A stretch of DNA of 64,000 nucleotides from Amyloporia xantha. Its lineage: Eukaryota; Basidiomycota; Agaricomycetes; Polyporales; Adustoporiaceae. Under the pieces are notes generated by a model. It saw only the letters and a list, made by a program, of their open reading frames with translations. It had not been told where the DNA came from and searched no databases. Positions 27,096 to 64,000 of the stretch are shown one piece after another. How positions within the stretch are numbered: position 1 is the stretch's first letter; every line of letters begins with the position of its first letter. The stretch covers positions 2,511,635-2,575,634 of the forward strand of contig JAYKKR010000003.1 of NCBI GenBank assembly GCA_036971615.1, read 5' to 3'. Made by a program: the position numbers and the translations under genes.

Positions 27096-28908
27096 GAAGG
27101 CACGTGTGGGCGATGCATGTGACTGTGAGAGTCAAGTGATCGTATCGATCGACTGGGCGCTGGGATGCGTTGGTCGTTCGATACGCCTCGACTTCACTTG
27201 TAACTGAGACGTACCTTTAACATGCCTCCGAAGAAAGCGACAACAACTGGAGGCCGCCGCCGAAGCAACCAGATCCTCCTGAGGTGGAGGAGCTCGATAG
27301 CAGCTCTGGAGAAGGAGGAGGAGGAGGAGAAGGTGAGTAGCATATACCTATGAGAGTGTGCATGGATAACACTGTGGACAGTGCCGGCTGTAACACAGCT
27401 GAGTCGGCCGATCACGCTGCGCGGTCAGCGTGCTGGGGTGCCGCAGGGGTATGCGCCGCCACGTCGGCAGTCGAAGCCTGCTGCGCCGCCTGTGAAGCAG
27501 GCGACGATCGCTGGGCCGTCGAAAGTCGGTGCAGTCATCGACGAGGACGAGGACGAGGATGATGTGGTGGAGGAGGAGGAGGTTGTTCCTGTGGCGAAGG
27601 GGAAGAAGAAAGGTAAGGCGAAGGCGAAAGGTAAGGCGAAGGGGAAGGGGAAGGGGAAGGAGAAGGCGCAGGAGGTGAGCGACGGGGACGGGGAGAGTGG
27701 GGAGGGGACGGGGAGGAGGAGGCCGCGGAGGAGGAAGACGAGCAGACGAAGGCGGAAAGGGAAGCGGAGAGATCGGAGGTACGTAAGATTAACATGATCG
27801 GGCTGGATGTGATATTGACGTTCGATCGCACGGGGATCTAGAATGCGTTGCGGAAGATGACGACCGCGATCGGGCTGACGGACGACTCGAAGGAACGGGG
27901 AGGAGGTGGCGAAGCTGGAGGCGAAGATTTCGGAGGCGCTGTACGGGCATGTGCGGGTGCCGTTGCTGGACTTCCTCGCGAAGGAGTTGGGGATGGTGTT
28001 CGTTCCGCACCAGTGGAACGATCGGCCGATCAACAAGATGGAGGCGACTCGGCTGCTGGCGGAGTTGAACGTCGAGCACGGTGGGCTGCTAGCGGGGAAC
28101 ATGATCCAGATTGCGATCTCGGAGAAGTTCCTGGACGATACGCTGACGCCTCGGGAGCTGCAGCGCCGGGCCGGACACCTTCTACCGGAGCTGAAGATCG
28201 ATCCCAGTGCGCGGGCGGAGCTGGAGGACGGTACGTTGGCGCCGGCGGAGGTGTACATCATCGGTGGGCACCACCGGAGGGAGGCGAACGCGATGTACTG
28301 CAAGCGTTTGCTGGACTCGTACGTGAAGGCGGAGGCGGAGATGGAGTTGCTGAGAGCGAAGACGGCGCGGACGGAGGTGGAGAACGATATGCTGACGAAG
28401 TTGGTGGAGATGTACGAGAAGGCTCGGGCACGTCTCGAGGAGAAGGCGATGTGGTCGGCGGAGGTGTACGTCTACGGTGAGTGTGCGATTGAATTATTAT
28501 TATTGGATGTTTTTATTAATACGCATTACAGAGAAGTTGAGTACGGAGATGGGGTTGCATCTGTCTCGGAACCGAGAGATGCATCGGTTCTACGAGACGG
28601 AGGACGAGTATTTCCTGATGACGCTGCGTGCGTTGCGGGAGCTGGACCGCGTCCCGGGGAAGTTCGATGCGAGGCTCGCGAAGGAGCTGAACGATGTGCG
28701 GTCGCGCACGGGGAATCGCGTCGGAAGCACGCGAATCACTTCGCGAAGCTGTGGGCGCACCCGCGGGCGGTGAGGTTCCTGATGTCTCTTACGAGATACG
28801 GGCGGGATTTCCTGCAATCGCCGTACCTGCGGATCGAGAAGGTGACGACGATGTTCAAGACGCACTTCGGGGTGAGTATGTGTGCTTACGATGGAGAGAC
28901 ATATGTTG

Positions 28909-28913
<5 letters not shown>

Positions 28914-28941
<28 letters not shown>
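28914..28941. repeat. AT dinucleotide microsatellite
   Basis: About fourteen AT units lie in a short A1 intron just before the acceptor TTGCAG. Confidence 0.9.
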
Positions 28942-28944
<3 letters not shown>

Positions 28945-29593
28945 CAGCTGTTCGTGTTCCTGGGGCAGCAGTCGTCGGACATCATGGGCTTGCTGGGGTC
29001 GAAGGAGGTGCACTCTGAGATGAAGACTGTGGCGGATGTCTCGAAGCTCCAGCGGAAGTTGATGGAGGACTTCGAGGACCTGGAGAAGCAGTACCGGGAC
29101 GAGGACCTGCATGCGAGGATGACGCGACTGAGCAAGCGACTGTCGTGGATAGGGTACCACGAGGAGCGTATGCTGATGATGCGTGGTACGCCTGATTGGG
29201 AGGTTTGGCAGGACGACGCGGTGATGGTTCTTGCTGACGGTGCGTTCCGTGCTGCTGTGCGGACGGAGGACTGGAAGCTGGGGAAGACGACGGAGGCGTC
29301 GCGGAAGCAGCTGGAGGACATCAGCGTGCAGCTGATGGACAGTCTGGAGGGGCATTGGCAGCGGAACCCGGCGGCGAACGAGGAGGAGAAGGCGTTCCGG
29401 CAGGTGGTGCTAGCGCGGATCAAGATGCTGTACACGCCGCTGCCTGCGGAGATGTACGAGTACGACCTGTTCATACCTCCTCCCCCGCTGTCCCGTGCGT
29501 ATCTGGCGTCGCTGGATAGCGAGCTGCAGCTGTACTCGTCGGGATGGTCTGTGGTGAGTGAATATTTTATACTCTGTTCCAATATGTCCGATA

Positions 29594-29928
29594 ACGCGCA
29601 TCCGCCCGAGCGAACGGATGCGCGATATCGGGACATATTTTTGTGTATGCGTGACGAGAGGTGCGTCTGACGCGCTTCAGCACGGTCGAACGGAAGCGCG
29701 TCAAACGCACCTCGATTGAATGCGCACAAGGTGCGTATATCGCGCATCCGCTCGCTCGGGCGGATGCGCGTCATACGAGTGCGATGACGACACACGTGCG
29801 TGTGCATGAACGTCGAATGACGCGCATCCGCCCGAGCGAGCGGAAGCGCGATATCGACGTCTATCGGACGACGTACCTGATGACCTCCGTTTTCGCGCAT
29901 CGGCCAGCGCGAACGGAAGCGCGATCTG
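29594..29928. repeat. P1 palindromes in an A1 intron (five copies)
   Basis: They lie within intron 29,554-29,968, at ~29,594, 29,671, 29,739, 29,819 and 29,894. The intron is 415 bp, against about 55 bp for palindrome-free introns nearby. Confidence 0.85.
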
Positions 29929-32129
29929 ACGACGCTATGGGTATGCTGACGGGCGTTCTTTTTTACAGATCGCATGGTTCATCGAACCGTTCGCACTGTG
30001 CACGTCGATGACGAACTCGACCGAGTTCATCGCCGACCACTGGCTGACGGTGTTCAACACGATCGAGCAATGGCCGGGGATCATGCCGGGGCAGGTGGAG
30101 AAGACGTGCGCCAGGCTGGCCAGGCTGGTGTGGAGCACGCGAGACGAAGCGGCGTCGTTCCTGGACGTGCACTGGAGACTGATGCCGGAGTCGGCGGGTG
30201 GAGCCGTTCGAACACGAAGAAAGAGCTCGGGACCGGCATGTTCGCGATGTTCTGGTCGAGTGGGTGGAAGAAGACGCGCGTCAGGGAGCCGTCGGCGGAA
30301 GAAGTGGAGAGTGCGAAGGAGTACCTCAAGTACATCGACTTCGACAAGGTGATGGCGCCGAGGTCGCTCGTGCAGACCGTGTCGGCGTTGATAGATGCGC
30401 GGAACGAGTTCGTCGCTCGGGAGGACCACAAGAAGGTCGAGCGTCTGTTCGGGTGGCGAGCGTTGTGGTTCTCGGGCATGCCGTGGAGGGCGAGCTGGCG
30501 GAGGAACCGAAGACGGGCAGGAAGGGCTGGACGTGCCTCAAGAACCTCCGGCGGGACATCTCGTCGATGGCGGTGGTGACGGCTCTGGAGATGAGCCACT
30601 TCCGTGCGTTCATGTTCGACTCGACGCCTCCGGTCATCCTGGATCTGCGGGATGACATCGCCAAGATCATGTCGGAGGGTATGGACTCGTCTGCGGAGGT
30701 CAAGTTCGAGTGGTGGGATGAGTGCGATCTCACGAAGCAGACGAAGGAGGTGTCGAATCCGACGTGGGTCGAGTCCGAAACGCGGGAGGCCAATCCGCAG
30801 CGCAAGAAACAGATGGACGTGGTGGATCAGGAGAAGAAGAGGAGGTTGGAGAAGGCGGCAGGGACGGCGACGGCGGAGAGCACGAGTCGTGCGTCCGGTG
30901 GAACGACTCAGGCGAAGGCCGGGGCCAAAGCGAAAGATGAGCGGAAGGCGGAGGCTTCTGGGTCGGCGTCGAAAGCAGCGAAGCCAGTCAGGAAGAGCCG
31001 GGGCAAGGGCAAGGCCGCTGAGACCGTCAAGGACCTTTCGGCGTTGGAGATCTCGGATCAGGCGGACCACGACTTGGAGGAGGCGAAGCGTCTCATCACG
31101 CTGATCGCGAACCTCCCGTCGGTTCGGCTGGTCACGCAGGATAACGTGGACGAGGATCCAACGACGCGTCCGCTGGACGGACTGGTCGCGTTCACGATGC
31201 GCCAGATGCACAAGGTGAGCGATCGTGTCTCTCTCTCTCTCTCGCGCGCGCGTACTTAACTTTGACGTACTCATCATTATAATGTGTTCGCAGGCGATCG
31301 TCAGTACCGTGGCGCACAATCGCGAGCGTCAAGTTACCGAGAACTGGACGGAGCGGCTCGATGCCTCCGTTCTGCTCAAGACGTATGACGCGAATTCGCT
31401 GCAGCTGCCCAATGCGCAATACTCGGATCGCTTTGAATATCCTTGGGTGCGTTTGAGCGTGCGAGAGAGACGGATACCGACATCTGACCTATTATTTTTA
31501 TATGTGTTCGCAGGACGTACCTACTGAGACCGACCTGAAGGAGCTGATGGACCTCGAGGAGTCCCACATCCAGGCGCTGCAACAGGAGGAGGAGGAGAAG
31601 AAACGGGCGAGGCGGGCTGCCAAGAAGAAGGCCATGGCAGAGATCGCTGCTGCACCTGAAGGTGCTGGTGAGCCGGAGCTGACGCAGGAGCAGAACGACG
31701 ATGAGGAGGAAGAGCAAGAGCCAGAGCCAGAGGAGGGTGGGGATGATGAACCGGAGGCCCCGGGTGAGCAAGGCGAAGGAGGCGGAGATGGACAGGGGGA
31801 GAGTGGGCCTGCGGGCAAGAAGCGCAGCAACTCGAACGTCTCCAAGAATTCGAAAAAGGCGACGACACCCTCTCCGGATAAGAAGCGTCCGCGCCGTGGA
31901 GAGACCCCTGAGCGCAACGAGGAGGAGGAGGAGGATGAGGAGGATGCGGAGATGGGGGACGACACGGGGAAGGGCAAGACGACCTCTGAGCCCGGCGTGT
32001 CTGCGCACCAGGAGCAGCAGGACATCCAGGGTGACGTGCTCTTCGCACCCGGTCAGCCTGATGACGACGACCAAGAGATGGACGACAACTTCATCGGTGA
32101 GTAAGCATGTTCGCCTCTGTGTGTCTCGT

Positions 32130-32563
32130 TTCGCGCTTCGGCCAGAGCGAACGGAAGCGCGAACGAGACATATATATATATCGTATTGATGCGTCGAACG
32201 CGCATCCGCACGGACGAACGGAAGCGCGATCCACGCACCTCGAGAGTGTGCTCAGACACTCCATCGAACGCGCATCCGCACGAGCGTACGGAAGCGCGTC
32301 ACGCGGGGGTACATGAAAATACTACCCGTACGACGCGCATCCGCCCGAGCGAACGGAAGCGCGATACATGCGTGGTGTGCACACATATATTCGTCCGACG
32401 CGCATCCGCACGACCGAACGGAAGCGCGATATACGGGGTAGTATTTTCATGTACCCCCGCGTGACGCGCTTCCGTACGCTCGGGCCGAAGCGCGTCATAT
32501 CGAATATTATTCGTGCATACTAAGCCGTTTGACGCGCTTCCGTTCGCTCTGGCGGATGCGCGT
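32130..32563. repeat. P1 palindromes in an A1 intron (seven copies)
   Basis: They lie within intron 32,097-32,636, after the acidic tract of A1, at ~32,130, 32,198, 32,267, 32,334, 32,397, 32,464 and 32,530. A2 has palindromes of the other family in the corresponding intron (59,944-60,272). Confidence 0.85.
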
Positions 32564-32701
32564 TATCGGCACCTTCTCCGTCTCGTATATATACCTATAC
32601 ATTTCTGACAAATATGTTGTTGCCTTCGCTCCTTAGACAACACGCAGGCCTCGGTCATCGCTGAGCAAGGCAGCCAGCTCCCCGACATGTTCACCCCCTC
32701 C

Positions 32702-32708
32702 TCCGCCA
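32702..32708 (+). repeat. FB1 target-site duplication, left
   Basis: TCCGCCA; the identical 7-mer lies at 38,879-38,885 directly after FB1. Confidence 0.85.
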
Positions 32709-32821
32709 GAGCCCATTCAGTCATTATAGCCTACTCTATAGGGAGAGATATGGGTGAAATTCTTATTACTTTGTCAGGAGAGCGGACGTCGGCCGACGCC
32801 CTCGCTATAGCCTACAGTCAA

Positions 32822-33340
32822 GGGTCGGCCGAGGGCTATAATATAGCCTGCAGATACAGCGCGGCCGACTGCGCCATATTTCTGTGGTATATTCTCGCCT
32901 TCAAGTAGTGTCGGCCGAGGGCTATAATATAGCCTTTAGACACGGCGCGGCCGACTGCGCCATATTTCCCTGGTATATTCTCGCCTTCAAGTAGTGTCGG
33001 CCGAGGGCTATAATATAGCCTTTAGACATGGCGCGGCCGACTGCGCCATATTTCCCTGGTATATTCTTGCCTTCAGGTAGTGTCGGCCGAGGGCTATAAT
33101 ATAGCCTTTAGACATGGCGCGGCCGACTGCGCCATATTTCCCTGGTATATTCTCGCCTTCAAGTAGTGTCGGCCGAGGGCTATAATATAGCCTACAAATA
33201 CGGCGCGGCCGAGTGCGCCATATTATTGTGGTATATTCTGGCCTTCAATGTAGGGATGGCCGAGGTGTATCATATAGCCTACAGACAGGGCACAGCTGAC
33301 TGCGCCATAAACTCTAGCTATATTTCAGCATGGCGCAGCT
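32822..33340. repeat. FB1 outer tandem repeats, left arm (~86 bp unit)
   Basis: About six units begin GTCGGCCGAGGGCTATA at ~86-87 bp spacing; the last units are more diverged. Mirror copies in the right arm run 38,345-38,770. Confidence 0.85.
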
Positions 33341-35060
33341 TGATAGAGCATGGCACTGTGTTGGGAATTTAATCCTACAGCTCTGCAAACCGCGCAGCTT
33401 TTTTGGGAATTTGATGGCACAGTTGTCCAAAGCATGGCGCTTTTTTGACAATCTGATGGCGCAGCTTGGTAGAGCATGGTGCTTTTTGGGGGAATGTCAT
33501 GGCACAACTTTGTAAAGCATGGCACATTTTTTTGGGAATTTTATGGTGCTTTTTTGACAGTCTCGTGGTGCAGCTCTCCAAAGCATGGCGCAGCTCTCCC
33601 AACCATGGCGCTTTGTTGGGATTCTCATGGTGCAGCTTTATAAAGCATGGCGCATTTTTGAGAATCTCATGGCGCAGCTTTGTAAAGCATGGCGCTTTTT
33701 TGCAAATTTGATGGCGCTTTTTTGACAGTCTCATGGCGCACTTCTCCAAAGCATGGCGCTTGCTTGGATATTTCATGGCACCGCTTTGCAGAGCATGGCA
33801 CATTTTTGAGAATCTCATGGCGCAGCTTTGTAAATCATGGCGCTTTTTTTGCAAATTTAATGGCGCTTTTTTGACAGTCTCATGGTGCACTTCTCCAAAG
33901 CATGGCATAGCTCTTCCAAGCATGGCGCTTTTTTGGATATCTCATGGCGCAGCTTTGCAAAGCACGGTGCTTTGTTGGGACTTTCATGGCGCTTTTTGGC
34001 GCTTTTTGTAATTTCATGGCGCTTTTTTGACAGTCTCATGGTGCACTTCTCCAAAGCATGGCATAGCTCTTCCAAGCATGGCGCTTTTTTGGATATCTCA
34101 TGGCGCAGCTTTGCAAAGCACGGTGCTTTGTTGGGACTTTCATGGCGCTTTTTTGGCGCTTTTTTGTAATTTCATGGCGCCTTTTTGACAGTCTCATGGT
34201 GCACTTCTCCAAAGCATGGCATAGCTCTTCCAAGCATGGCGCTTTTTTGGATATCTCATGGCGCAGCTTTGCAAAGCATGGCTCTTTTGTGCGAACTTCA
34301 TGGCGCTTTTTGACAGTCTCATGGCGCAGCTTTGAGAGCATGGCACTTTCTTGGATATCTCATGGCGCACTTCTCCAAAGCATGGCGCAGCTCTCCCAAG
34401 CATGGCGCTTTCTTGGATATCTCATAGCGCAGCTTTGCAGAGCATGGCGCATTTTGAGAATTTGATGGCGCTTTTTTCACAGTCTCATGGTGCAGCTCTC
34501 CAAAGCATGGCGCTTTTTGACAGCCTCATGGCGTAGCTCTCTAAAGCATGGTGCTTTGTTGGGATTCTCATGGTGCAGCTTTATAAAGCATGGCGCATTT
34601 TGAGAATCTCATGGCGCAGCTTTGTAAAGCATGGCGCTTTTTTGGCAAATTTGATGGCGCTTTTTTGACAGTCTCATGGCGCACTTCTCCTAAGCATGGC
34701 ACAGCTCTCCCAAGCATGATGCTTTCTTAGATATCTCATAGTGCCGCTTTGCAGAGCATGGCGCTTTTTTGGATTTCTCATGGTGCAGCTCTCCAAAGCA
34801 TGGCGCAGCTCTCCCAACCATGGCGCTTTGTTAGGATTCTCATGGCGCAGCTTTGCAGAGCATGGCGCTTTTTTGGATTTCTCATGGTGCAGCTCTCCAA
34901 AGCATGGCGCAGCTCTCCCAACCATGGCGCTTTGTTAGGATTCTCATGGCGCAGCTTTGCAGAGCATGGCGCTTTTGTGCAAATCTCATGGCGCAGCTTT
35001 GTCAAGCATGGCGTGTTTGTGGCATAACACAGTGCTTTTTCTTGGAATTCCACAGGCTGC
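33340..35060. repeat. FB1 inner minisatellite, left arm
   Basis: Dozens of 40-65 bp units carry CATGGCGC, GCAAAGC and TTTTTTGG/GACAGTCTC blocks in shuffled order. Mirror array at 36,290-38,340 in the right arm. Confidence 0.85.
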
Positions 35061-36289
35061 TCTGCAGATCATGGCACATTTGTGAGAATGTCATGGTGCA
35101 GCTTTTTACAGTATGGGGTATTTGTGTAAAGTTTGTGGTGCACCCCTGCATGATAATGCTTTGTAAAGTATGGTGGTCCTCTGTAGTATCATACATAGGC
35201 TAGTCATGGTTGCTTTTCGAGGTTCAAATTCACCCTTTTGCTTCACATCTTTGTGCTTGTTTCCTATGCAGTTGCCTAAACATGCAATCTGGAATGGGCA
35301 TCTAGAGATCCTGCAACCCAATGGATGCATAATTTGAAGTACCACCCCTGGGGCATAAGTTGCTAAGTAAAATGATTTGCTCCATGTGATTATATTACAT
35401 ATAATAAACATTTTGGCCAACAAACATTGTAACTCTGCTCTTTTAGGCCTGTCTTACACCCATATCATGTCCATCTTATGCCCGTCTTACACCCATCTTA
35501 CGCGCATCTTATGCCTGACTTATGCCCCTAAAGGTGGTGAACCATGACCATATTTATAGAGCATAGCACAGCTATGCAAGCACAATATATGTGTGCACAA
35601 GCTAAACAAAACCTGTCTTATGATGTGGTATAGAGATTTCATCGAGATATGCCATAGATCAGCTGTGCCACTTCACTGTTGACAGTTGTTTGTAATATAG
35701 CTCACTCAAGTGTAGGTCGTAACACACACTGTTTTGTGGCTTCTATAACTAGTAGTTCTGCAAGGACAGGTATCATATATACATAGCAGGCTTATATGAC
35801 AATAGTAGACACTCACTATGTATAGTACTAGGGATATTACAAAACTGCTTGTTCCAGATGAACTGTGTCTCAGGCTAAACTGTGATAAGCCCAAGTATTG
35901 GCAAGTGTATAATCAACTACTTGTGAATACATAGCAGTAGTCAGTAATGAAATTGTTACTAAACATCTAGTCATCCAATTGGCTTGTCTTCACCAATCTT
36001 GCTATTCACCAGGTTGACATTCAACACATTTCTCATCCACTGGTCTCACAATCCATCAGGCTTGCCCTTACCAGTGTCGTCATTTATAAAAATTGTGCTC
36101 TTCTTATTTGCATCAAAGCTCCACCTGTCTCTACAAAGCTCTGTCATCACCTACAATGCTGAGCCATCCATATAACCAAGTATCTTTTGCATGATTGATA
36201 CAAAATTGGCATCACTCTTTACAGCCTATAAAGCTGCACCATACAAAAATGCACTAAGCTTTACAAGCTGCGCCAGGAGATTCTCAAAA

Positions 36290-38340
36290 CATGCCATGCT
36301 TGACAAAGCTGCGCGATGAGATTTGCACAAAAGCGCCATGCTCTGCAAAGCTGCGCCATGAGAATCCTAACAAAGCGCCATGGTTGGGAGAGCTGCGCCA
36401 TGCTTTGGAAAGCTGCACCATGAGAAATCCAAAAAGCGCCATGCTCTGCAAAGCTGCACTATGAGATATCTAAGAAAGCATCATGCTTGGGAGAGCTGTG
36501 CCATGCTTAGGAGAAGTGCGCCATGAGACTGTCAAAAAAGCGCCATCAAATTTGCCAAAAAAGCGCCATGCTTTACAAAGCTGCGCCATGAGATTCTCAA
36601 AATGCGCCATGCTTTATAAAGCTGCACCATGAGAATCCCAACAAAGCACCATGCTTTAGAGAGCTACGCCATGAGGCTGTCAAAAAGCGCCATGCTTTGG
36701 AGAGCTGCACCATGAGACTGTGAAAAAAGCGCCATCAAATTCTCAAAAATGCGCCATGCTCTGCAAAGCTGCGCTATGAGATATCCAAGAAAGCGCCATG
36801 CTTGGGAGAGCTGCGCCATGCTTTGGAGAAGTGCGCCATGAGATATCCAAGAAAGTGCCATGCTCTCAAAGCTGCGCCATGAGACTGTCAAAAAAGCGCC
36901 ATGAAGTTCGCACAAAAGAGCCATGCTTTATAAAGCTGTGCCATAAGATTCCCAAAAAAGCGCCATGCTTGGGAGAGCTGTGCCATGCTTTGGAGAAGTG
37001 CGCCATGAGATATCCAAGAAAGTGCCATGCTCTCAAAGCTGCGCCATGAGACTGTCAAAAAAGCGCCATGAAGTTCGCACAAAAGAGCCATGCTTTGCAA
37101 AGCTGCGCCATGAGATATCCAAAAAGCGCCATGCTTGGAAGAGCTATGCCATGCTTTGGAGAAGTGCACCATGAGACTGTCAAAAAGGCGCCATGAAATT
37201 ACAAAAAGCGCCAAAAAGCGCCATGAAAGTCCCAACAAAGCACCGTGCTTTGCAAAGCTGCGCCATGAGATATCCAAAAAAGCGCCATGCTTGGAAGAGC
37301 TATGCCATGCTTTGGAGAAGTGCACCATGAGACTGTCAAAAAAGCGCCATGAAATTACAAAAAGCGCCAAAAAGCGCCATGAAAGTCCCAACAAAGCACC
37401 GTGCTTTGCAAAGCTGCGCCATGAGATATCCAAAAAAGCGCCATGCTTGGAAGAGCTATGCCATGCTTTGGAGAAGTGCACCATGAGACTGTCAAAAAGG
37501 CGCCATGAAATTACAAAAAAGCGCCAAAAAAGCGCCATGAAAGTCCCAACAAAGCACCGTGCTTTGCAAAGCTGCGCCATGAGATATCCAAAAAAGCGCC
37601 ATGCTTGGAAGAGCTATGCCATGCTTTGGAGAAGTGCACCATGAGACTGTCAAAAAGCGCCATGAAATTACAAAAAGCGCCAAAAAGCGCCATGAAAGTC
37701 CCAACAAAGCACCGTGCTTTGCAAAGCTGCGCCATGAGATATCCAAAAAGCGCCATGCTTGGAAGAGCTATGCCATGCTTTGGAGAAGTGCACCATGAGA
37801 CTGTCAAAAAGCGCCATTAAATTTGCAAAAAAAGCGCCATGATTTACAAAGCTGCGCCATGAGATTCTCAAAAATGTGCCATGCTCTGCAAAGCGGTGCC
37901 ATGAAATATCCAAGCAAGCGCCATGCTTTGGAGAAGTGCGCCATGAGACTGTCAAAAAGCGCCATCAAATTTGCAAAAAAGCGCCATGCTTTACAAAGCT
38001 GCGCCATGAGATTCTCAAAAATGCGCCATGCTTTATAAAGCTGCACCATGAGAATCCCAACAAAGCGCCATGGTTGGGAGAGCTGCGCCATGCTTTGGAG
38101 AGCTGCACCACGAGACTGTCAAAAAAGCACCATAAAATTCCCAAAAAAATGTGCCATGCTTTACAAAGTTGTGCCATGACATTCCCCAAAAAGCACCATG
38201 CTCTACCAAGCTGCGCCATCAGATTGTCAAAAAAGCGCCATGCTTTGGACAACTGTGCCATCAAATTCCCAAAAGCTGCGCGGTTTGCAGAGCTGTAGGA
38301 TTAAATTCCCAACACAGTGCCATGCTCTATCAAGCTGCGC
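36290..38340. repeat. FB1 inner minisatellite, right arm
   Basis: Inverted counterpart of the left array, about 300 bp longer because a ~185-bp higher-order unit is repeated several times between 37,085 and 37,800. Confidence 0.85.
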
Positions 38341-38344
38341 CATG

Positions 38345-52664: not shown

Positions 52665-53218
52665 AACGATTATAGGGATCAGTGACGTTCAAAAGTACAT
52701 ACATGAACATACTCACATGGTTGTCAAATAAAATACATTGGCTGAGACAAGACATGTTTTAATAATTAGGCGCCAGGAAGGCAGACAAGAAAGCGAAGGG
52801 AATATGGAGAAAGATGGATGTTGTAGAATATGTGTATTTGATCGGGGATATGGATAATTAGCCAATGGAAGGCCTATGATAAGGAGACCTTGTGTACTGG
52901 GTGAGGCGGGCCATGTGGTGATGGGGATGCAGAGACGCTATTCCCATGTCAAAACTAAATGATGTGATGCGCGGAGGATGACATATATAGATGAGAAGAT
53001 GATGCGTGTGACAGGGCGCATCAAGGAGAGAACCGGAGAATAAGCAAGATAGAATTGAATGAATCTGGGGATCTGAGGATCTGAAAAATAGTCTGGGAAG
53101 AGCTTGAATATATTGAGATGTGGCGAGGGCTTCTGAAACGTAAGATAGAGGAATAGTGTTATAAGAGAGAGGGGAAGAGGAGACGAAATGCGAAAAGAAT
53201 ACCTATCCCCGTATCCCA

Positions 53219-53592
53219 ATGGCGACGATCTCTGAGGAGGAATACAATGAGCACATGTACCATGTGGCATGCCTAGGGTATGCGGGACTGCGAGTGGAGT
53301 GGGAGTGGGGAGTTGCGAGCAGAGGGACGGAACATCCGGCGGAGGTGTGGTACGAGTGGGCTCAACGAGTCCTATGGTACGGTGTGAGTGATTGTGTCAA
53401 CAACAGTTATGTGGAAGCTGACCTATATTACTTGGGCAGTACATGGTGCTAATGGGTACGCTGAGGTCGCATAACCCAGGGATGATCATCTACCAGGTGC
53501 TTGGGATCTACCGTCCGTTGGTTGAACTTGCGGCGGAGATTGTTCAAGACATGGAGAATGAAGCAAGGATGGAGGACGTCCAAGCTGACTGA
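53219..53592 (+). CDS. Module 2 small protein C1
   Basis: Two exons (53,219-53,383 and 53,440-53,592) give 105 residues with an intact frame. No known domain. It shares GLRVEWEWG...WYEWAQRVLW with C2 (GLELEWKQ...WLEWAERVLW), followed by a helical C-terminus (LVELAAEIVQDMENEA). The splice site falls right after RVLW in both genes, which supports common descent. It lies between two P2 arrays, on the same strand as C2, A2 and B2. Function unknown. Confidence 0.6.
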
Positions 53593-53741
53593 TGGTAAGC
53601 AACAGTTTATTAGATGTATGAATGTATGAATAATTATTAGTAGGATCACCGTAGCATTCGTGTAGAAGGGTAAAATGTGCATGTGTCATGCACAGAAAAG
53701 ACTATATTTAATAGTTTAGTATGGGATGAAAAGTGTGACAG

Positions 53742-53927
53742 CGCGGAATAGCGATCACGATCGCTATTCCGTAACATCTCGACGTTGGATACCCGAGGAA
53801 TAGCGTCCCAGGACGCTATTCCGTGTAATCTCTATCTCGAAGATATCAGGAATAGCGTCCCAGGACGCTATTCCGTGATATTCTGATATCGGATATCACA
53901 GGAATAGCGTCCCAGGACGCTATTCCG
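53742..53927. repeat. P2 palindromes between C1 and C2 (four copies)
   Basis: At ~53,742, 53,797, 53,850 and 53,901. The first has a different centre (GCGATCACGATCGC) that is still palindromic. The rest of 53,593-54,357 holds no certain gene; an in-frame extension of C2 upstream to 54,133 is possible. Confidence 0.85.
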
Positions 53928-54357
53928 TCATTCTATCGCTCGATCGGCCAATCGATCGAGATATGAACGGGTGATCGGAGCGCACAACAGGACATGATTT
54001 ATTGTGGGGTTTTTTTAGTATGCCGTCTTCACATAGAAATATATTGAGGGATGCAGATAGCCTCTCTCGTTGCGTATTTCGGAGACATTAAACATTCATT
54101 ATTTACAACATGAAGTGAATTGTGTCTAAATTATGTACGTGCAGAGCGTTGTGGACACGAACCATGTTGATGGTCGCGAACGGCCTCATTTTTGCCTGTA
54201 TGCGGATGCACGTGTGATGTTGCATCAAGCTTCTGTCAAACAGCCGTGTGTTCAATTCGGTGATGGAAAGGCATGGGCGCTAAAAGGAGACGTATATGAA
54301 AGCCAGCGGTGGGTCGGAAGACGTACTTTCAGTCTTTTTGTCCTCATCATATCCACC

Positions 54358-54769
54358 ATGACAGGCAACAATCCGTTCCGCCTCCCTGCGAACACGCTCG
54401 TTGGAGTGTGTGGTATGGTCACGAAAGGTTTTGACGGCCTCGAGTTGGAATGGAAGCAACGACCTATGGCGCAGCCGTTCGTGTTCTCTGCGATGTGGTT
54501 GGAGTGGGCGGAACGTGTCTTGTGGTGTGCAGTAAGTCCATAGAGAGGTGTTTGAAGGCTATGGACTTACATGGAATTGACAGGATATGGCACGATTTGG
54601 AATGGCGGTGCTTTCTGGTATATATGGTGCGCGCGATGCGGACGGGATTCCGATCGGGAAATACAGGGAGATCATCTCGTTAGCGCATGACATCAAGTCG
54701 ATGAGTCCTGCTGTGCTTCCGGGACAGCTGAGGATGTTGGAATCGGTGAAGAAGGGGTCGAAGCTGTGA
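54358..54769 (+). CDS. Module 2 small protein C2
   Basis: Exons 54,358-54,531 and 54,584-54,769 give 119 residues, frame intact. It is a paralogue of C1 by the GL.(L/V)EW and EWA(E/Q)RVLW blocks and by the intron position. The C-terminal half (MARFGMAVLSG, YREIISLAHDIKSM) is helical. The start MTGNNPF is chosen for similar length to C1; an upstream in-frame ATG at 54,133 would add 75 residues with no match in C1. Function unknown. No equivalent is seen in module 1. Confidence 0.6.
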
Positions 54770-55275
54770 GAATGTACTGGTATGGAATAGTGGAGTCGTA
54801 GAGTGTGCGTTTGATGTACTATGCGCAGCATGTGTCTACTGTAGTGGAGGAGCCGAGCAGCTGGGTGCAATCTGACATTGTTTGGTTGAAAAGGAAATGG
54901 ACGACATGATGCTACCGGACATTATAAATGGTTGGGAAGGAGAACATGTCGGTGAACCGGTAGCATGTGTATGATACAAGTCGGATGAGGGAAAAATATA
55001 TTGAAAGGTGACTATGTAGATGTATGTGATAGAGGGAGGGAATATGGGAGTCCGAGAAGTACGGAGAAGGATGAGAAGTGAGAGATGGTGAGAGAAGATG
55101 CGCCGAAGTGATCGAGCCAAGAGTGTGGGAAAGAATGACTATATTGGGCGCAGCCGCGCGCGCCGGCGCTGAGCGGCCTTCCCGAATTGGTGTTCGCGCT
55201 GTTGGTCTACACATCCACATACTAAATCCATTCGCTCACTGCTTCCATTCTAAAATCGAAACTCTTGAGTCCAAG
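54770..55275. other. A2 upstream region
   Basis: No palindrome or gene is seen. It presumably contains the A2 promoter. A GC-rich patch (GCGCGCGCCGGCGC) lies at 55,155. Confidence 0.4.
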
Positions 55276-56117
55276 ATGCCTCCGAAATCGAACGCTGCGA
55301 CGGCGGGGCCGAGCGCCGCGAAGGCGAAGCCTGCAGGGCGGAAAGCGGGCAAGGCCGTTGAGGGCGCCAGCGCGGAGGGGTCGGGAGCGGCGGCGGGGGC
55401 AAAGGGGAAGAAGAAACCTGCTAAGAAGCGCAAGGACGAGGAGGAGGATCAGGAGGAGGAAGTCGAGGTGAGTTAGGGAATTTCTTGGGAGGGAACGAAT
55501 TCGCTGATAGATGAGGGGCGCAGGTCATGAAATTCGAGCCGGTACCTGAGGAAACGCTCGAGCTCGACCGTCTCGCGACGCAGCACCGGCTCGGGTTCGC
55601 GCGAATCGACATGCTGGAGACGGAGGCGTACTCGCCTGTTTTCGGCGGGGAAAATCTTCGTCCTATGGTGGTCAAGCAGCGGGACGGCCTGGAGGAGAAC
55701 CTCAATGTTAACGGAGTGCACAGCTATGCGAGCGACTCGCAGCTTCCCCTGGCGGTGTATCCGGAGGACCTGGACATGGAGCCGAGTCAAGACGAGTTGG
55801 GCGGCATCAACCTTCCGAAGCTCAAATTCAAGACGAGCGGGTACCAGATCATGGCGTGCGGTGGGCAGCATCGTCACGCCGCTGTGAACCACATGGTCGA
55901 GAAGCTGCGCAAGAAGATCGAGGTGTACGAGAAGGACCGCAACAAGCTCGAGAAGAAGCTCGAGGCGGGGAATGCGAATGCGCAGGCGAAGGACCAGCGG
56001 ATCGCGAACAACATCGCCGACACCGAGAAGAAGATCGAGGAGCTTCGTTGGTGGGCGTGAAGCTCTACGACCGTCGTAAGTATACGCGTATTTTTATTTT
56101 TATTTTATTCGACGGTA

Positions 56118-56364
56118 TGCGGAATAGCGTCCTGGATCGCTATTCCGTATAACGCCGCTCCATCGATATTGCGGAATAGCGTCCCAGGACGCTATTCCGC
56201 GACGCACGCACATACACGTGGTGCGGAATAGCGTCCCAGGACGCTATTCCTCATCCTCACGCTGGTCGATATAACATGGAATAGCGTCTCGGGACGCTAT
56301 TCCGCACCGCGTGTATGTGCGTGCGTCGCGGAATAGCGGGAATAGCGTCCTGGGACGCTATTCC
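56118..56364. repeat. P2 palindromes in an A2 intron (five copies)
   Basis: In intron 56,076-56,432, at ~56,119, 56,171, 56,222, 56,277 and 56,337. The last is preceded by a truncated half-unit (GGAATAGC GGAATAGC), suggesting a slip or insertion. Confidence 0.88.
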
Positions 56365-59300
56365 GCGACGGCCCCTCTTCGTCTCGACTTAATAATATAA
56401 TTTATCGGCGCTGACGATTTCATTTTTTGCAGGCGCTCTCGAGAACAACCGCAGTCTCTCGAAGCATCTCTCGCGCAACGAGGTCAAGCATCGTTATGGC
56501 GAGACACACGAGGAGCTGCTCGTGTCGAGGCTCGCTGTGCTGGAGGAGTACCTCAAGCAGGGAGAGACGTTTTTCGAGAACAAGGTCAGGGGTCTGAAGG
56601 ACGACAAGCTGAACTCGCGCACCAATCGCATCCTCTCGAACTTCCACATTGTGCGCATGTTGTCCCATATGAACAAGATGGGTTCATACTGGCGTCGACA
56701 GGAGACCTTCACCATGAAGTTCTTGTGTTCGCTGGTGAACATTCACGCTGCGGTACGTTTGTCTTGTCATATAATTTCTTTTATTCTCACTCAATCATTC
56801 CACACAGCATTTCGCCGTCATTTTCGACATGAAGCACCTGGAGCTGTCATGCATCGAATCGGCGAGCGAGAATTTCCCATCGCTCGAAGAGGTCTCGACG
56901 CTCATCAAGAATCTGGAGAAGGCGCAAGAAACGCTATCTTCCGCTGAGTACGCCAAGCTCCCTGAAGTCGAGACGGCCAAGAAGTGGCTTCAAGACATCA
57001 AAGGAGGCAAGGTGGGAGAGCTCCAGATCTTCAAGGACAGGGACACGCTGGATGGCCTAGACACGGTATTCAACATGTTCTTTGGACCTTCCCTCCCTTG
57101 GATCGGTGTGAAAGAGGGGACATACATCAAGAAACTCGAGGGATATCGCACCAGGGTCATCAGTTGGCTCGATGAGCGGCTGGAGATTATGGTCAAGAAA
57201 GGTGAGGTCAGCGAAGCACACGCCGATCGAGTGCTCGCGCGGACGTTCGTTTTACTGTCGAGGCAGAGCGATATCCATCGTTCGCCTCCGCTGCCACTGC
57301 TCTGCGCGTCGATGATGGCAGCCATCAACCAGATGTTCCTGCGGACCCCGCTGGCACAGCAGGAGGTGAGTTTGTTTGCTCTTTTCCCTAATGTGTTCCA
57401 CTGATGGGCGCTTCTGTAGGTATGTGGGTACTTCGAAGGCTTGTGGTGGTATTACCGTGGCAAGAACTCGCGGGATCAGATCATGAACGACGGCTCGACA
57501 TGCATTTACAACGCTGTCCGCTCGGTTCCGCACATCCGCGCTCGCGAAGCGTATCATAAGGTGCGTGGATACGATTATGATTAGCATTAAGTACATTTGT
57601 GCTGACATGTGCATGGGCTCGCAGATCGCGCAGGTCCTCATCGACTTTTGCCCTCGATCGATGACGCGCCTGGAGTGCGATCTGATCGAACTCGCTATTC
57701 CGCGAATTACAGACAAGACGAAGGTGGAGCAGATGGTGCAAGCCGAAGACGCAGACAGTACACTCTGGACGATTTACAAAAAGGAGCCATGGATGTCCGA
57801 CAGGAACCAGTCTGACATTGACAACTGTCATGAGTGGCTGCTGCCGCACCTGAAGAGGAACGAGACGGACCGCGCGGCGAGGGCGAAGATGCTGACGGAA
57901 AGAAAAGCGGGATTCCGTCCACCTCCTGGGGGTCGTCTGGGACTGACATCGCACCCACGCATCGCAGGGCTGCTGATCCGCAGCCATCCGCCGAAATGGC
58001 TTTGCGCTGCGATGATCGTGGAAGAGGACACGGTGACCAGCTACCGTCACAAGACGATGCACGCGGACACGTTGGATCTGCGGGAGGCTCTGCGAACTGC
58101 GATCGAGAGCAGCATCGAGCCGCAGAGGGAGTGGAACGAGGAAGAGAACCGGATGTGCAACATGCCGACGGCGAAGTTCCACTTCTGGGACGAGACGCTC
58201 CTGGAACAGACGACAGGTAAGAACAGGCCGATCGCTCGTGAGTGGCCTACGGGAGTGAAGGGGGGTTAGAGGGGTTGAGGGCGCTGGATCGAATCAAGTC
58301 GACGGCGCATTATCGCCAGGAGGTGCAGTCGATCATCCGTTCGATTGAACGGATGTCTGTTGCACGACTTCCACCTGCCAACCACAACCGGATTGTGGTC
58401 TCGGACGAACCTGGAGCTGTTGCGAAGAAGCGTGAACAGCCAGCTGTTGCGCGAGAGGTGTACATCGCGACGAGACTGCTGGCGAAGGTAAGCGAAATGG
58501 TTGTGAGACGCGATGGGGAGGTATGCTGACTTCGAACGACGGCAGGTGCTCGACATCAACGCCAATCGTAATGTGTGGGACCAATACGACTTCGAAGGCG
58601 ACAAGCCGCAGTTCGACTTGCAGGACGTTGAATACGGACGATATGTCCACAGCAACCATTCGACATATTCTGAAGGGATGGCTGGCGAGTCGAATGTGAG
58701 GACATGCACATGTATTACACAATATTCTAAAATTCTAACTATGGTGAACAGCTGCTGAAACGATGACGAGCGTATACAGCAACACCAGGCGGGAAACGGC
58801 GCCTCCCAAGCAAAACATCACGCTGGTGGTCAAAAAGGAGCCCACAGGCGACGAGGGGGCGGAAGTGACAGCGGCGAAGAGAGCGAAGAGGGAGGGACGA
58901 AGCATGACAAGGCGGCTTACGGGAAAGGCAAGCGGAAGGCCACGAAGAAGGTTGCAAGGGCATATTCCGAGCGACGACGACTTGTCGGACGTGGAACCGT
59001 CGGAGGGTGCGTCCGAGGGCAACGAGGGAGAGTCCGGGATTGGAGAGCCGACGGAACCTGTGGAAGAAGAGGAGGAGGGGGAACCTTCTGACGAGGAGGA
59101 GGGGGAACCTTCTGACGAAGAGGAAGGGGAGCGTTCGGAAGAAGAGGAGGGGGCACCTCCGGAAACCGAGATGGAGTCGGAGCACGGGGATCAGCCAGTC
59201 GAGGAGCCTGGAGCGATGGAAGTCGACAGCACGGGCGGAGAGGTATCCACCGCGACGGATGGGGGCGATGGAAGGGGAGACGAAAGACATCACCCCAGCT

Positions 59301-59977
59301 GAGGCGGAGGACTTGAACACATCGGGAGGTCATCGCCGATGGATCTGGAAGAGGAAGACGTTGAAGAGCTGCCCAAGGCAGCAGCGCCGAGCCAACCTCC
59401 CAAGAAGGTGACCATACTACCTCGCTGGCGAAGGGAACAGATGGCGAAGAAGGGCGGGATCGAAGCGCCAAGCGCAGCGGCTCCAAAGATACCTCAATGG
59501 CGGCTGGCAATAATGGAGGAGGATGCCCAGACCGCCGCGGCTGCGCTGGCTGCTACAGCGAGCCAGTCTGAGTGACGACTTGTTGACCGAAACGCAGGCG
59601 AGTGCTCCACCGTCGAGTCTCGCCACGACCTTGGATACCCCTGCGGCGAGCCAAGACGTTCCTATGGACACCGATGCGAGCCAGGCTAACGAAGGCGCAT
59701 CTGCGGACGACGATGAGCAGTACTGGATCGACAGTGACCGAGACCACATCTGCGACATGTTGGAGCAGGAATCCGATCGGCTGGAGAAATTCATGCGGGA
59801 GTCGAGCGCCGCGTCTGAGGACCTGGACATGTTGAAGCATCTGATGATTGGACAGGGACCCATAGAGAACGCAATATTCGTTCACGACGAGGACGAGCCC
59901 ATGGCTGAACAAACCGCAGACGGATCTGCACCACCCAGAGGAGGTAAGTTTTCTCTTCTTCTCACGTTCGTAAACCA

Positions 59978-60216
59978 GGAATAGCGTCCTGGGACGCTAT
60001 TCCATGGTTTACACGTGCTTGGTGTTTCGTGGAATAGCGTCCTGGGACGCTATTCCATAGTTTGCATGTGCTTGGTGTTTCGTGGAATAGCGTCCTGGGA
60101 CGCTATTCCGTGCGTATGCGTGCGTCGATGTTTCGTGGAATAGCGTCCCCAGGACGCTATTCCATGAGTATGCGTGCTCGATGTTTCGTGGAATAGCGTC
60201 CCAGGACGCTATTCCT
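59978..60216. repeat. P2 palindromes in an A2 intron (five copies)
   Basis: In intron 59,944-60,272, at ~51-56 bp spacing. The spacers themselves are repeated (GTGCTTGGTGTTTCG, CGATGTTTCG), so this block looks like tandem amplification. Confidence 0.88.
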
Positions 60217-61867
60217 GAGTTTCCTATCACATCCTTTGTGTGATTATGTGACAACTCACATCGCTATGATAGGTGCTGATTCCAGTACAGCATCGTCCTC
60301 TCAAGTATCGGTTATCAATGTTGATGACATTCCGGACGCGCCCAAGAGAAGGAAGACGAGGATGGAGAGGACTCCCAAAGCTACCATAGATTGGAACTCT
60401 CCTATCCCTCCTCGGCACAAATTCAATCGGGATGTCGTGGTGAACAGGGATATCAATTTCTTCATTAAATTGCCTGGGCAGAATCGTGAGTGCTTCGTCT
60501 AGCCTAACCTCGCACATGACTGAGACATTAATGATGTTTCGTTTGTTTGCAGAGACTGTGCTTCCGCTCACTAGCCATCGTTTGAAGAAGATGAACGCTG
60601 CCATTCGCGTTATCAAGAACGAGGGCCTTGCGTCGTTCGCTCCAGACGTGATCAGGAAGATAGAGAAGTACATGTCTCCGGAGGATCTACAGAAGTTCGG
60701 TCTGGACGCTCTCATCAAGAAACACGAAGAGGAAGTCAGGGCTACAAAGAAGCCACGATCCCTGCGGAGCCATCTTCGACTCCACCGCCGATGCCCCCAC
60801 CCCTGCTCCTGCCAGCTCGGATTCTGATGCCTCTTTCGCATCTAATTCTCCGTATCCTCCATCGCAGTACACGTCTCCCATTCGTCGCGCTGGTACGTCT
60901 CGCCAGCCCAATTATTTCCCTCAGGAACACAGGCAGCGGCCCAGCGGCCCAGCAGCCTACCAGAGGCAATTCGCCCTGCCCCCCGTTCCAGAGACATCGG
61001 ATCATCTCGCTCGTCAGCCAGCGCATCGGCCTCACCAAGCTCCCTTGCAGTTCACAGACTCTCAAGATTTCGAGAAGTATGCGGATGACATAGAGCAACT
61101 CGAGATCGAGATGCAGGAAGCGGAAGAGGAGCGTGAGCGCAACGCTGGATTAGACTTCACCCAGAGTCAGTTCAACGATTCTGCGCCGTTGTCATCCCAG
61201 GAAGACTTCGAAATGCACTCCAGTGTCGACTCTGGCTTTCATACGGATTCGCTCGGGCAACGGCAAGACAATTCCTCCGCTGTCGCGCTCGGAGCAAAAC
61301 GAGATCGCTCAAATAGCGCGGGGCACGAGCAACGTATGTTTTTTGTCTCTCATCTTGTCCTTCCCTCAATCTGACTTCCTTTTGCATCTGCTTAGGTCCT
61401 GACAAGAAAATGCGCCAGGACGAACGGTCCGACAGTGGTCACGCGCAGGCACACACCGGCACATCCGGCAATGTGCCTCAGCCCCTCGCCGATCTCCGCG
61501 CCGCGTCCTGTGTTCACTCCTCGGATAACTCGCGCAAGCTCAATGGCTGCTGCTGTGCGCGAGTCCTTAACGGTGGCTAACATGGAGCAGCGCCGCGACG
61601 AACTCACAGCGCAAGGCCAGCCTCCTCGCTCGGGTGGGTTTCGTATCCTGGCACCGGCAAGAAACAGCGTGGTGGCTCGCGCTCTCGATCTGGATCCGCA
61701 GCGCCCATGGAACCGTCCAATTCGCAGAAGTCTGGCGCTCAGGGGTCGTCGTCCTCGCATGATCGAGATTTGTCGTGTCGGACGTCTAGTCGCACATTTC
61801 GTTGTCATGCAGCTTATGTCATTTTCGTTTATCTATCGGCGCAACGTTGCGCCTTTTCCTGCTACTA

Positions 61868-62572
61868 ATATCTTCACCCTGCTTCATGTCCTTTACTTAA
61901 ATAGCAGTACCTTTGCAATGGCAATAGTTATCATTTATGCACTCTGGAGCGTGTATACCAGTGGAATCTGTCTCGAGCGCACTGGCCTCGGAGGCAGGCT
62001 GCGTGTCAAGCGCACTACTATTGCATCCGATGCCTGCGAAGTTAGCGACTTCGCCCCGTCCGCGGAGTAGTACCCGGAAGTATATCTGAAACACAGATCT
62101 CATTTCCCTTAATGGTATGTGCCGCAGCAGCGTTCATCCATGCGAGATCCCCGCTGCGTCCCTAATGCGGGACTACCGATGATCCCACCTTTGAGTTAAC
62201 GCGTCGAATCCGCTTTTGGTTAGATCGCGCGTTCAGCGCGATCTCGCCTTTCCGATTCCATTCCCTGTTAAGCTTGCCGACGAACGACGGCTTCAGGGTC
62301 GGGTCACGCTCCGTCGGGTGTCAACGAAAGAAAAATTGAGACCGAAATGTTTCAAATTATTCCAAATTTGCGAGTGGCCCGACCAGGTCGTGCGGCCGAA
62401 GGCGATATCCAAACAAACAGTTGGTGTATAAAAGCCAGCCTCATCCTCTCCATGCTCTGCAGAGCCTGTCCTCAGACAAGCATAGCGTCCTTTGTCTTCG
62501 AACATCGCTCTCCCGCTTTCTCTACATCTATCTCTACTCGCTTTCCAAAATCCTTCGACTCTGCTGCCCTTC
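61868..62572. other. A2-B2 intergenic region
   Basis: The size is similar to the A1-B1 gap. A small inverted repeat GATCGCGCG/CGCGATC lies at 62,223-62,246. No gene recognised. Confidence 0.45.
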
Positions 62573-64000
62573 ATGGACCCCATGGACGTGGACGATATCG
62601 CTGCTCGTTTCGAGCGTGTAAGTCGGAACCCGCTACTCTGTATTTATGAGTGATTTGCTGACCTCTTTGTCTTGGTGTTCAGCAGCGAGCAGCTGCGGAC
62701 GAAGGAAATGCGCCTCCTCCGGCGCCACGAAGTTCTCGCCGAACCGTCACTGAGGAGAAGATGCGTAGAGATGTTACTCGTTCTGCGCAGGAGATACGAG
62801 GCTCACCATGCGTGTTTGTTCTCCAGGGCCGAAGAGACGAGCGATTTCCAGCTCACTCTTGCCGGTGCTCTGGGCCCGATTCGAGCATCGACGATGTCCC
62901 CAACGGGATCACTCGCGCCACGACGCCCCTCGGTCAAGAGAGGAGGGTGCAACGCTGTCTCCTGTACGACGCGGACAGCAGGAACCCTCCTGTCAACTGG
63001 GACCAGCAGCCCACCATCACCGCATTCACTCTCTCCGCCTTCGAGCGCAACTTCCAGGCGTCACGCGACCAGACTGGCGCCATCCAGCCTTCTTCGCAAC
63101 AGAAGGTCAAGCTCCAGATACGACCCCAGAGTACGTGATCCCTTCCTGACAGATGGCCAGTCTCGTCTGGGAGCTCCGCGAGCATTTCATCGACTACGAG
63201 GAGGTCGTCCCTCGCGAGACACGGCCTCGACGCTATATCCCTGCCGAACGCTGTGGTCGATCCGACCTACAGCTTCGTGCTCGACGTCCACAAGCCTTAC
63301 CGTATCTTCAAAAAGCCAAGTTAGAGGTGCGTCGAGGGTTTTTCCACCGAGCGTGTACGTATGATGTACGTCGGCCGCTCTGAACGCGTTGTCGGAGGTC
63401 TGCGCGAACTCGCTATCGCGCCCCCCCACAACTGGCCCAGCGCCGCCGATGCCGAAGGATGGCGCAAGAGCAGTTGGGTGATATGTGCGTACGCCGCTCG
63501 AGAAACGGGTGATTCTACGTATGCTACCTCAAGCCACATCGAGATGTTGCGCTTGTTATCGCCCACTGCGTCAGCTTGAGTCCCCACCCAGCCCATCGCC
63601 GTCACTCGGCCCTACGGGTCTCCCGGGGAGAAAGGACCCGAAAAAGCTCACCGCTGTCTCCAGTGGCACCAATATACCTGTGCGTATCCCGTTAAATCTA
63701 TTGCATGATATATACTGACGAAAACACTCCTTTTTATCCGACCTTCATGCTGCGTTTCCGTGGGAATATCGTCCCGGGACGCTATTCCTACGATATTCAC
63801 CTCTTGCGTTTCACGGAATGCACCGTCCTGGGACGCTATTCCACCATTCTCCACTCATGGCGTTCTTCAAAATTTAACAGGGATTTCAACGGCGCTCGAG
63901 ATGCGCCTGGTCGATACTGTGAAGCTCAGTGATCAAATCTGTGACCAGTGGGAGCCGTGGCTCCAACTCAGGCTCCGGCTGAGTGGAAGGAGGACGGGTT
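62573..64000 (+). pseudogene. Module gene B2, 5' part: homologue of B1, runs off the window
   Basis: MDPMDVDDIAARFER, intron 62,618-62,692, then a Pro/Arg-rich exon. Frame pieces matching B1 in order: LDAISLPNAVVD (B1 LDACLPTVLSD), FVLDVHKPYRIF (B1 LELDLKQPYR), MMYVGRSER (B1 MMYVGRCRD), HPAHR, and after an intron QWEPWLQ (B1 SWEPWVQ), then EWKEDGF in the next frame (B1 RWRKAGF). The pieces lie in different frames, so several small indels are implied (around 63,150, 63,215, 63,320 and 63,945). Intron 63,680-63,880 holds two P2 palindromes. The 3' part lies outside the window. Confidence 0.6.
63758..63843. repeat. P2 palindromes in a B2 intron (two copies)
   Basis: In intron 63,680-63,880; both are slightly degenerate on the left arm (GGAATATCGTCC; GGAATGCACCGTCC) but keep the GGACGCTATTCC right arm. 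Confidence 0.85.

What the first reader, a model, noticed from the sequence alone, without database searches (positions are those of the whole stretch)
27222..64000. Duplicated, divergent two-gene module (A then B) in a transposon-rich block
Seen in sequence: A1-B1 (27,222-45,986) and A2-B2 (55,276-end) have the same order and strand, similar intergenic gaps and shared protein landmarks. A: MPPK start, GG[HQ]HR, LSRN..HR[FY].ET, acidic tail. B: LDA..LP, LD..PYR, MMYVGR, WEPW[VL]Q, [RE]W[RK]..GF. Their nucleotide sequences look well diverged, so this is not a recent tandem duplication. Inference: a mobile or selfish two-gene system that inserted here at least twice, or an old duplicated locus. 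I recognise neither gene as a known transposase, helicase or recombinase.
Basis: partly seen in the sequence, partly recalled or inferred. Interest (0 to 1): 0.9.

Follow-up and report, generated by a model that had tools for sequence, protein, structure and literature searches.

The report
Outward-pointing mobile elements at chromosome ends
The two gene pairs belong to a family of mobile DNA elements that lie mostly near the chromosome ends of this likely fungal genome, most of them pointing outward, each joined by the same exact front edge to different DNA and often cut short at the back; they likely add themselves onto broken or shrinking chromosome ends with two proteins of unknown type.

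Summary
The duplicated A-B module is real and mobile. The window is the last 64 kb of contig C23. A1-B1 and A2-B2 belong to two element families, E1 (starts 26540) and E2 (starts 51539), with close copies elsewhere. The front edge is exact: all 46 copies found read [flank]ATTATATAGGG (38) or [flank]ATTATAGGG (8), on 45 different flanks. The far side varies: next element, a Penelope-like element, or (TTAGG)n telomere, inside gene B at C55 and 150 bp into E1 at C17. 40 of 46 point to the nearest contig end. In the window E1 interrupts a Helitron. Where the intact target is known it has A at the junction in 10 of 10, AT in 9. Gene A has a probable ParB/sulfiredoxin-like domain (moderate support); B is DUF8190; tested exons are under purifying selection. 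E2 carries its own palindrome, 55 exact copies. No reverse transcriptase was found in E1/E2, in a limited scan. Best reading: an element that adds itself to chromosome ends, HeT-A-like in outcome, with machinery of its own; the joining chemistry is untested.

The parts
26540..51538 (+). Family-1 element E1 (A1-B1), with two later insertions inside; ends where E2 starts
   Evidence: left edge and internal homology to C34, C23 start, C55; 38 E1-type junctions read
26540..26572 (+). Exact left (centromere-side) end of E1: ATTATATAGGGTTTTCGTAACTGGGTTGGGGTA (the first AT may be target)
27222..32101 (+). Gene A1 (intron-containing, frames broken): probable ParB/Srx-like domain with GGHHR within 27879-28469
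29596..29922 (+). E1-type imperfect palindromes in an A1 intron (4 of the 19 sites in the window)
32708..38878 (.). Inverted-repeat (foldback) element inserted between A1 and B1, target duplication TCCGCCA; not part of the module
40199..45985 (+). Gene B1 (DUF8190 family), introns, frames broken
47233..49461 (.). Second inverted-repeat insertion inside E1, target duplication TGAAACT
51539..64000 (+). Family-2 element E2 (A2-B2), runs off the contig end
   Evidence: 97.4-97.9% identical to C17 and C10 copies; 8 junctions
51539..51571 (+). Exact left end of E2: ATTATAGGGAGTTTTTCTAAATGGGTTGGGGTA
51611..63788 (.). 25 palindromes GGAATAGCGTCCNNGGACGCTATTCC (up to 3 mismatches), none in the six modelled A2 exons tested
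55276..61800 (+). Gene A2, introns, GGQHR domain within 55525-56077; end of the tail approximate
62573..64000 (+). Gene B2, 5' part; the C17 copy reaches a stop (read as 1690 aa across one frame break)
23653..26539 (+). Helitron (DUF6570 + Helitron_like_N) interrupted by the left end of E1 right after ...GRLTLHLHLLL; the target of E1

Best explanation
A1-B1 and A2-B2 are two families (E1, E2) of one kind of mobile element that is likely added, left end first, to broken or eroding chromosome ends, which would make copies stack head to tail, point outward and lose their outer part. Shown: the left end is exact to the base on 45 different flanks; 40 of 46 left ends point to the nearest contig end; outer parts are cut at differing points and are followed, where read, by the next element, a Penelope-like element or telomere repeats; where the intact target is known it had A in 10 of 10 and AT in 9 of 10; A and B are conserved and linked. 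Inferred: A, through a ParB/sulfiredoxin-like NTP-binding or nuclease domain, recognises the element's own palindromes and left end; with B it joins that end at an AT in exposed chromosome-end DNA. The strand whose 3' end faces the telomere then begins TTATA(TA)GGG and the rest of the element is copied or ligated outward. Telomerase or another element later caps what erosion leaves. The joining step and the roles of A and B are untested.
For: 46 left ends, 0 in the reversed control; 38 of 38 E1-type preceded by ATTA and 8 of 8 E2 by AT, next base outward random, 45 different flanks. 40 of 46 point to the nearest contig end, on 23 of 25 contig ends (binomial p 1e-5); 21 of 46 lie within 20 kb of a contig end, where at most 5.1% of the genome lies. 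The B genes, which do not depend on survival of the left edge, point outward on 11 of 12 contig ends (p 0.003; 17 of the 19 rows used: C57 left out as ambiguous, one C55 row as a second piece). Telomere repeats directly on a truncated element: C55 end inside B1, C17 start about 150 bp into E1. Element on truncated element: E1 onto B1's 3' side at C23, onto A1 at C11 and C12, onto E1's front at C23:21174. Left ends stacked 194-793 bp apart on six contigs. Twelve of 16 telomere arrays seen at or by contig ends have a left end within 34 kb (this telomere list is incomplete). dN/dS: 0.21 for B2/B3 over 662 codons, 0.25 and 0.29 for two A2/A3 exons. ParB/Srx-type structure matches.
Confidence: 0.58

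Rival explanations
1. The elements are copied by reverse transcription in trans: an antisense RNA ending ...CCCUAUAUAAU-3' anneals by 1-3 bases (A, AT, ATT) to a chromosome 3' end and is copied by the Penelope-like (or telomerase) reverse transcriptase of the same chromosome ends, as HeT-A is; A and B do something else.
Against: The Penelope-like copy on C11 joins through TTAGGTTAGG, the E elements in 0 of 46 junctions; its sequence shares only a 14-base match with the window; A and B are kept by selection; no hammerhead match at E1's left end.
Confidence: 0.22
2. An ordinary two-ended DNA transposon (Helitron-like by its AT target) prefers subtelomeres; chromosome ends then break inside it and are healed by telomerase.
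For: AT target in 9 of 10, as recalled for Helitrons; direct telomere healing at C55 and C17.
Against: Orientation is biased for the B genes too, 11 of 12 contig ends; no target remainder follows the newer element at the C23 start, nor in the first 6.5 kb of C11; no common right end was seen in the copies read.
Confidence: 0.12
3. Passive subtelomeric repeats spread by recombination between chromosome ends, like yeast Y' or telomere-linked helicase genes.
For: Subtelomeric, tandem, near-identical copies; a RecQ-type helicase gene (named by eye) lies beyond one truncated copy on C10.
Against: 45 different flanks at one exact base; recombination would carry the flanks along. Only the C34:1998k/2014k pair shares a flank.
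Confidence: 0.05

Closest known systems
HeT-A/TART/TAHRE telomeric retrotransposons of Drosophila
   Same: Head-to-tail stacks at chromosome ends, exact inner end, variable outer truncation
   Different: They are non-LTR retrotransposons whose genes run toward the centromere (recalled); E genes run toward the telomere, keep introns, and no RT was found in them in a limited scan
Terminons / Athena Penelope-like elements (rotifers) and telomeric Penelope-like elements
   Same: Giant, multi-gene, telomere-stacked, truncated at the outer side (PMC6431247, passages read)
   Different: Terminons always carry RT (PMC5537684, passages) and join via reverse-complement telomere repeats and a hammerhead (PMC6431247); E joins at AT with no TTAGG (0 of 46), and no RT or hammerhead was found
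Helitrons
   Same: AT target (recalled for Helitrons)
   Different: No Helitron domain in the A and B pieces and relatives scanned; the Helitron here is E1's target, not its kin
Fungal telomere-linked RecQ helicases / yeast Y' elements
   Same: Multi-copy subtelomeric genes; Agaricus bisporus var. burnettii has 19 subtelomeric RecQ gene models and many unknown subtelomeric genes (PMC7473861, passages)
   Different: E has an exact edge on unrelated flanks and unrelated genes
ParB / Noc / KorB / sulfiredoxin superfamily
   Same: A's N-terminal domain: fold matches and a G-x-H-R motif like the signatures FG/SGCHR and DGQHR given in PMC4619093 (passages)
   Different: No significant sequence hit; long helical remainder; eukaryotic mobile context

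Membership tests
Terminal retroelement (HeT-A, terminon, Penelope) | Exact inner end on many unrelated flanks, variable outer truncation, fixed orientation at chromosome ends | tested here: met
   6 of 46 orientation exceptions
Terminal retroelement (HeT-A, terminon, Penelope) | Encodes a reverse transcriptase | tested here: inconclusive
   No Pfam hit reaching its cut-off in 10 A and B exon ORFs nor any hit in 8 of the 30 minus-strand ORFs of 150 aa or more in E1/E2; but the Penelope-like RT itself was missed by Pfam in the same call, and the full right end is unknown
Terminon / Athena | Junction through telomere repeats | tested here: not met
   0 of 46 junctions end in TTAGG; the C11 Penelope-like junction does
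Terminon / Athena | Hammerhead ribozyme at the inner end | tested here: not met
   none among 16 matches at E <= 1 in window 26300-28300; E2's end only at gathering threshold
HeT-A/TART | Coding strand runs toward the centromere | tested here: not met
   A and B run toward the end
Helitron | Rep (HUH) plus helicase protein | tested here: inconclusive
   no Helitron domain in the exons or in relatives P0002, P0009, P0013, P0014, while the neighbouring Helitron is hit; the element's full right end is unknown
Helitron | Insertion at AT | tested here: met
   AT in 9 of 10 known targets, A in 10 of 10
Y' / subtelomeric repeat | Flanks shared between copies | tested here: not met
   45 different flanks among 46
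ParB/Srx superfamily (protein A) | ParB/Srx fold with G-x-H-R nucleotide-binding motif | tested here: inconclusive
DUF8190 (PF26608) family (protein B) | Sequence homology to DUF8190 proteins | tested here: met
   11 hits, E 3e-212 to 7e-88, 10 of 11 with precomputed PF26608; the Pfam scan here did not list the domain for P0002 and P0009

The most novel reading that the evidence does not exclude
A telomere-attaching selfish element that needs no reverse transcriptase: A is a ParB-like DNA clamp or nuclease in a eukaryote whose parS-like sites are the family-specific palindromes kept in the element's own introns and 5' region, and with B it welds the element's left end onto exposed chromosome 3' ends, a second way of lengthening chromosomes beside telomerase and end-directed retroelements.
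Probability: 0.27. Interest if true: 0.95.

Novelty: categorically new. Interest (0 to 1): 0.87.

Why it matters
The mobile elements I know to extend chromosome ends in a fixed direction are retroelements (recalled; also the reviews PMC5537684 and PMC6431247, passages only). Here is an abundant family with the same outcome but a different target, opposite gene direction and unfamiliar proteins, B having relatives in several bolete and polypore fungi. It offers a testable second route to chromosome-end extension, may explain fast-changing subtelomeres in such fungi, and gives a possible role to a family named only DUF8190, for which the one search of the held papers by that name found no article.

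Tried and rejected
Pfam, NCBIfam, PHROGs, PADLOC and PDB sequence searches with A and B pieces gave nothing that reached a curated cut-off or that I could use: weak coiled-coil-like hits (best NCBIfam E 0.00045, far under its cut-off), one undescribed PADLOC hit at E 0.008, and a ParB-like partition nuclease PHROG at E 0.19. The protein search with A2 found no relative; a search with the L. mollusca A protein found three, all from that species. The B structure model was too poor to search. Foldseek with A's model had no match at E <= 0.001. Rfam: nothing at gathering level in the window; the matches at E1's left end at E <= 1, nearly all microRNA families, score below their cut-offs and probably reflect the palindromes. 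TTAGGG as the telomere repeat was wrong: one internal site only; the repeat is TTAGG. The idea that the big inverted repeats are the element's ends was rejected because the C34 copy lacks them. Two papers opened late, PMC9674265 and PMC4700185, had passages on other matters.
Full report
What the window is. The window is G000:C23:2511635-2575634, and C23 has 2575634 bases, so it is the last 64 kb of that contig. The genome has 46.8 Mb in 60 contigs. It is likely a mushroom-type fungus: B's relatives come from Suillus, Fomitopsis, Leucogyrophana and Chiua.

The module. A1 (27222-~32101) and B1 (40199-45985), then A2 (55276-~61800) and B2 (62573 on), all on the + strand with introns by my reading. 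Frames are broken in places in the window; the C10 and C17 copies read through some of these stretches. B1's exon 40445-41230 matches the C17 copy of B2 at 32% over 254 aa. A1 and A2 match weakly (57 aa at 37%, in a small comparison with low-complexity noise), but both align with the same L. mollusca A proteins. P0009 of L. mollusca is one gene model holding A then B; P0009, P0013 and P0014 are listed with the same longest-contig length, 49,998.

Copies. An A1 query gave 36 matched pieces; leaving out the diverged C58 pieces and counting the two C12 pieces as one, I read them as 14 A1-type places, of which 10 have B about 4-11 kb farther out. A2's exon is 100% identical at three places, the window's own included, with a second family at 59% and fragments of others. 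A fourth family (B at C36, C15, C57, C59) is 31-42% identical to the rest. C10 and C36 hold different families head to tail.

The exact front edge. Alignment of copies showed E1 starting at 26540 and E2 at 51539. The pattern TATAGGGN{6,16}GGGTTGGGG occurs 46 times in the genome and 0 times reversed. I read the flank of all 46. All 38 E1-type copies have ATTA before TATAGGGTT and all 8 E2 copies have AT before TATAGGGAG. The next base outward is random (C 12, T 9, A 9, G 8 in E1), and 37 of 38 and 8 of 8 flanks differ; the two that agree are neighbours in a C34 tandem array. The 38 include two variant edges (C10:133k, C13) and one with a base missing (C42). Families whose edge departs more from the pattern would not be counted. 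For 10 junctions the uninterrupted target is present in the fetched loci or window: A in 10 of 10, AT in 9 of 10, ATT in 5 of 10; in the tenth a sister copy has AT. In the window the flank is a Helitron (DUF6570 E 2e-42, Helitron_like_N 2e-12), cut right after ...GLFGPTSTYYGTVESQGRLTLHLHLLL, which I take, by eye, for its HUH motif.

The far side and the telomere. The C23 start bears (TTAGG)n; so do the C1, C5, C11, C17, C27, C32, C42 and C55 starts and the C6, C7, C9, C22 and C55 ends, with arrays on C25 and C35 whose contig lengths I did not see. This list is incomplete, since one search printed only its first places. Three more arrays lie inside contigs (C7:860034, C11:20579, C55:60292). Twelve of the 16 terminal arrays have a left end within 34 kb; C25, C27, C35 and C42 do not. 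At the C55 end telomere repeats begin inside B1; at the C17 start E1 is about 150 bp long and then telomere. At the C23 start B1's 3' side is followed at once by a new E1 edge. At C11 a truncated A1 is followed by TTAGGTTAGG and then an element whose reading frame runs back from the telomere. I call it Penelope-like from a recalled RT motif (TGDVVAFYPNIP); Pfam gave it no hit. Left ends lie 194-793 bp apart at C23, C44, C17, C5, C32 and C12. So the outer part is lost at differing points.

Orientation. 40 of 46 left ends point to the nearest contig end, 23 of 25 ends without exception; 21 lie within 20 kb and 34 within 50 kb of a contig end, where at most 5.1% and 12.8% of the genome lie. Left edges could survive better in that orientation, so I checked B: outward on 11 of 12 contig ends (C57 and a second C55 piece left out). 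The exceptions are C34 (1998-2031, 2379, 2409 kb) and C42:166k, which points to C42's telomere. C34 may hold a fusion or a misjoin; I could not test this. As a yardstick, the Penelope-like RT is found at 18 places; the 17 whose contig length I know all code away from the end, as terminal retroelements do. E genes run the other way.

Palindromes. GGAATAGCGTCCNNGGACGCTATTCC occurs exactly 55 times genome-wide, 0 in the control; the 50 listed all lie just beyond an E2 left end on C10, C17, C19, C22, C23, C34 or C55. In the window 25 of 25 E2 sites (up to 3 mismatches) lie outside the six modelled A2 exons tested. E1 has a different palindrome (19 sites in the window). In the third family three of the four long palindromes in L040 read GGAATATCG...CGATATTCC, changed alike in both arms. 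That suits a site for a dimeric protein or a hairpin; binding by A is inference.

Mechanism and limits. The pattern is what end addition predicts. Whether it is done by A and B on DNA, or by a retroelement enzyme on an antisense RNA, is open; the graded 1-3 base overlap with the target fits either. No Pfam hit came from 8 of the 30 minus-strand ORFs of 150 aa or more in E1/E2, nor one above cut-off from ten A and B exon ORFs, but the Penelope-like RT itself was missed in the same call, so this is weak. All ten literature searches gave no paper that I recognised from its listing as describing such an element; I read passages, not whole texts, of six papers. I rate it categorically new because no kind I know combines this gene content, this target and this polarity; if the reverse-transcription rival is right, it would be a new variant of the terminal retroelements.

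Noticed in passing
L041:14-175 (C23:14-175) and other contig ends: The telomere repeat is the pentamer TTAGG with rare TTAGGG units, unusual as far as I recall for a basidiomycete; an assembly artefact is not excluded.
   Followed up: partly
L059:183-2311 and 17 other places: Telomere-attached Penelope-like RT (named by eye), joined at C11 through TTAGGTTAGG onto a truncated A1; on several of the same contig ends as E elements.
   Followed up: partly
window 32708-38878 and 47233-49461: Two palindromic inverted-repeat elements with 7-base target duplications (TCCGCCA, TGAAACT), absent from the C34 copy.
   Followed up: partly
window 27222-32101 versus 40199-45985, also A2/A3 and B2/B3 exons: A and B lie on one strand but have opposite third-position bias (A G3 0.37-0.68 over C3 0.19-0.33; B C3 0.46-0.57 over G3 0.23-0.25), and GC skew flips between A1 and B1. 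Unexplained.
   Followed up: no
L053 (about C10:96.8-101.4 kb): Beyond an E2 copy truncated inside B2 lies a RecQ-type telomere-linked helicase gene, named by eye.
   Followed up: no
C34:1998-2031 kb: Three E1 left ends in tandem at 16.27 kb spacing, 0.4 Mb from the contig end; two share a flank, so part of the array is a local duplication.
   Followed up: partly
C58:902885-908636: A diverged A relative (35-61% identity pieces) far inside a contig (L061).
   Followed up: no
L060:2830-5583: Minus-strand ORFs a few kb from the C5 telomere look by eye like a helicase of the SNF2 kind.
   Followed up: no
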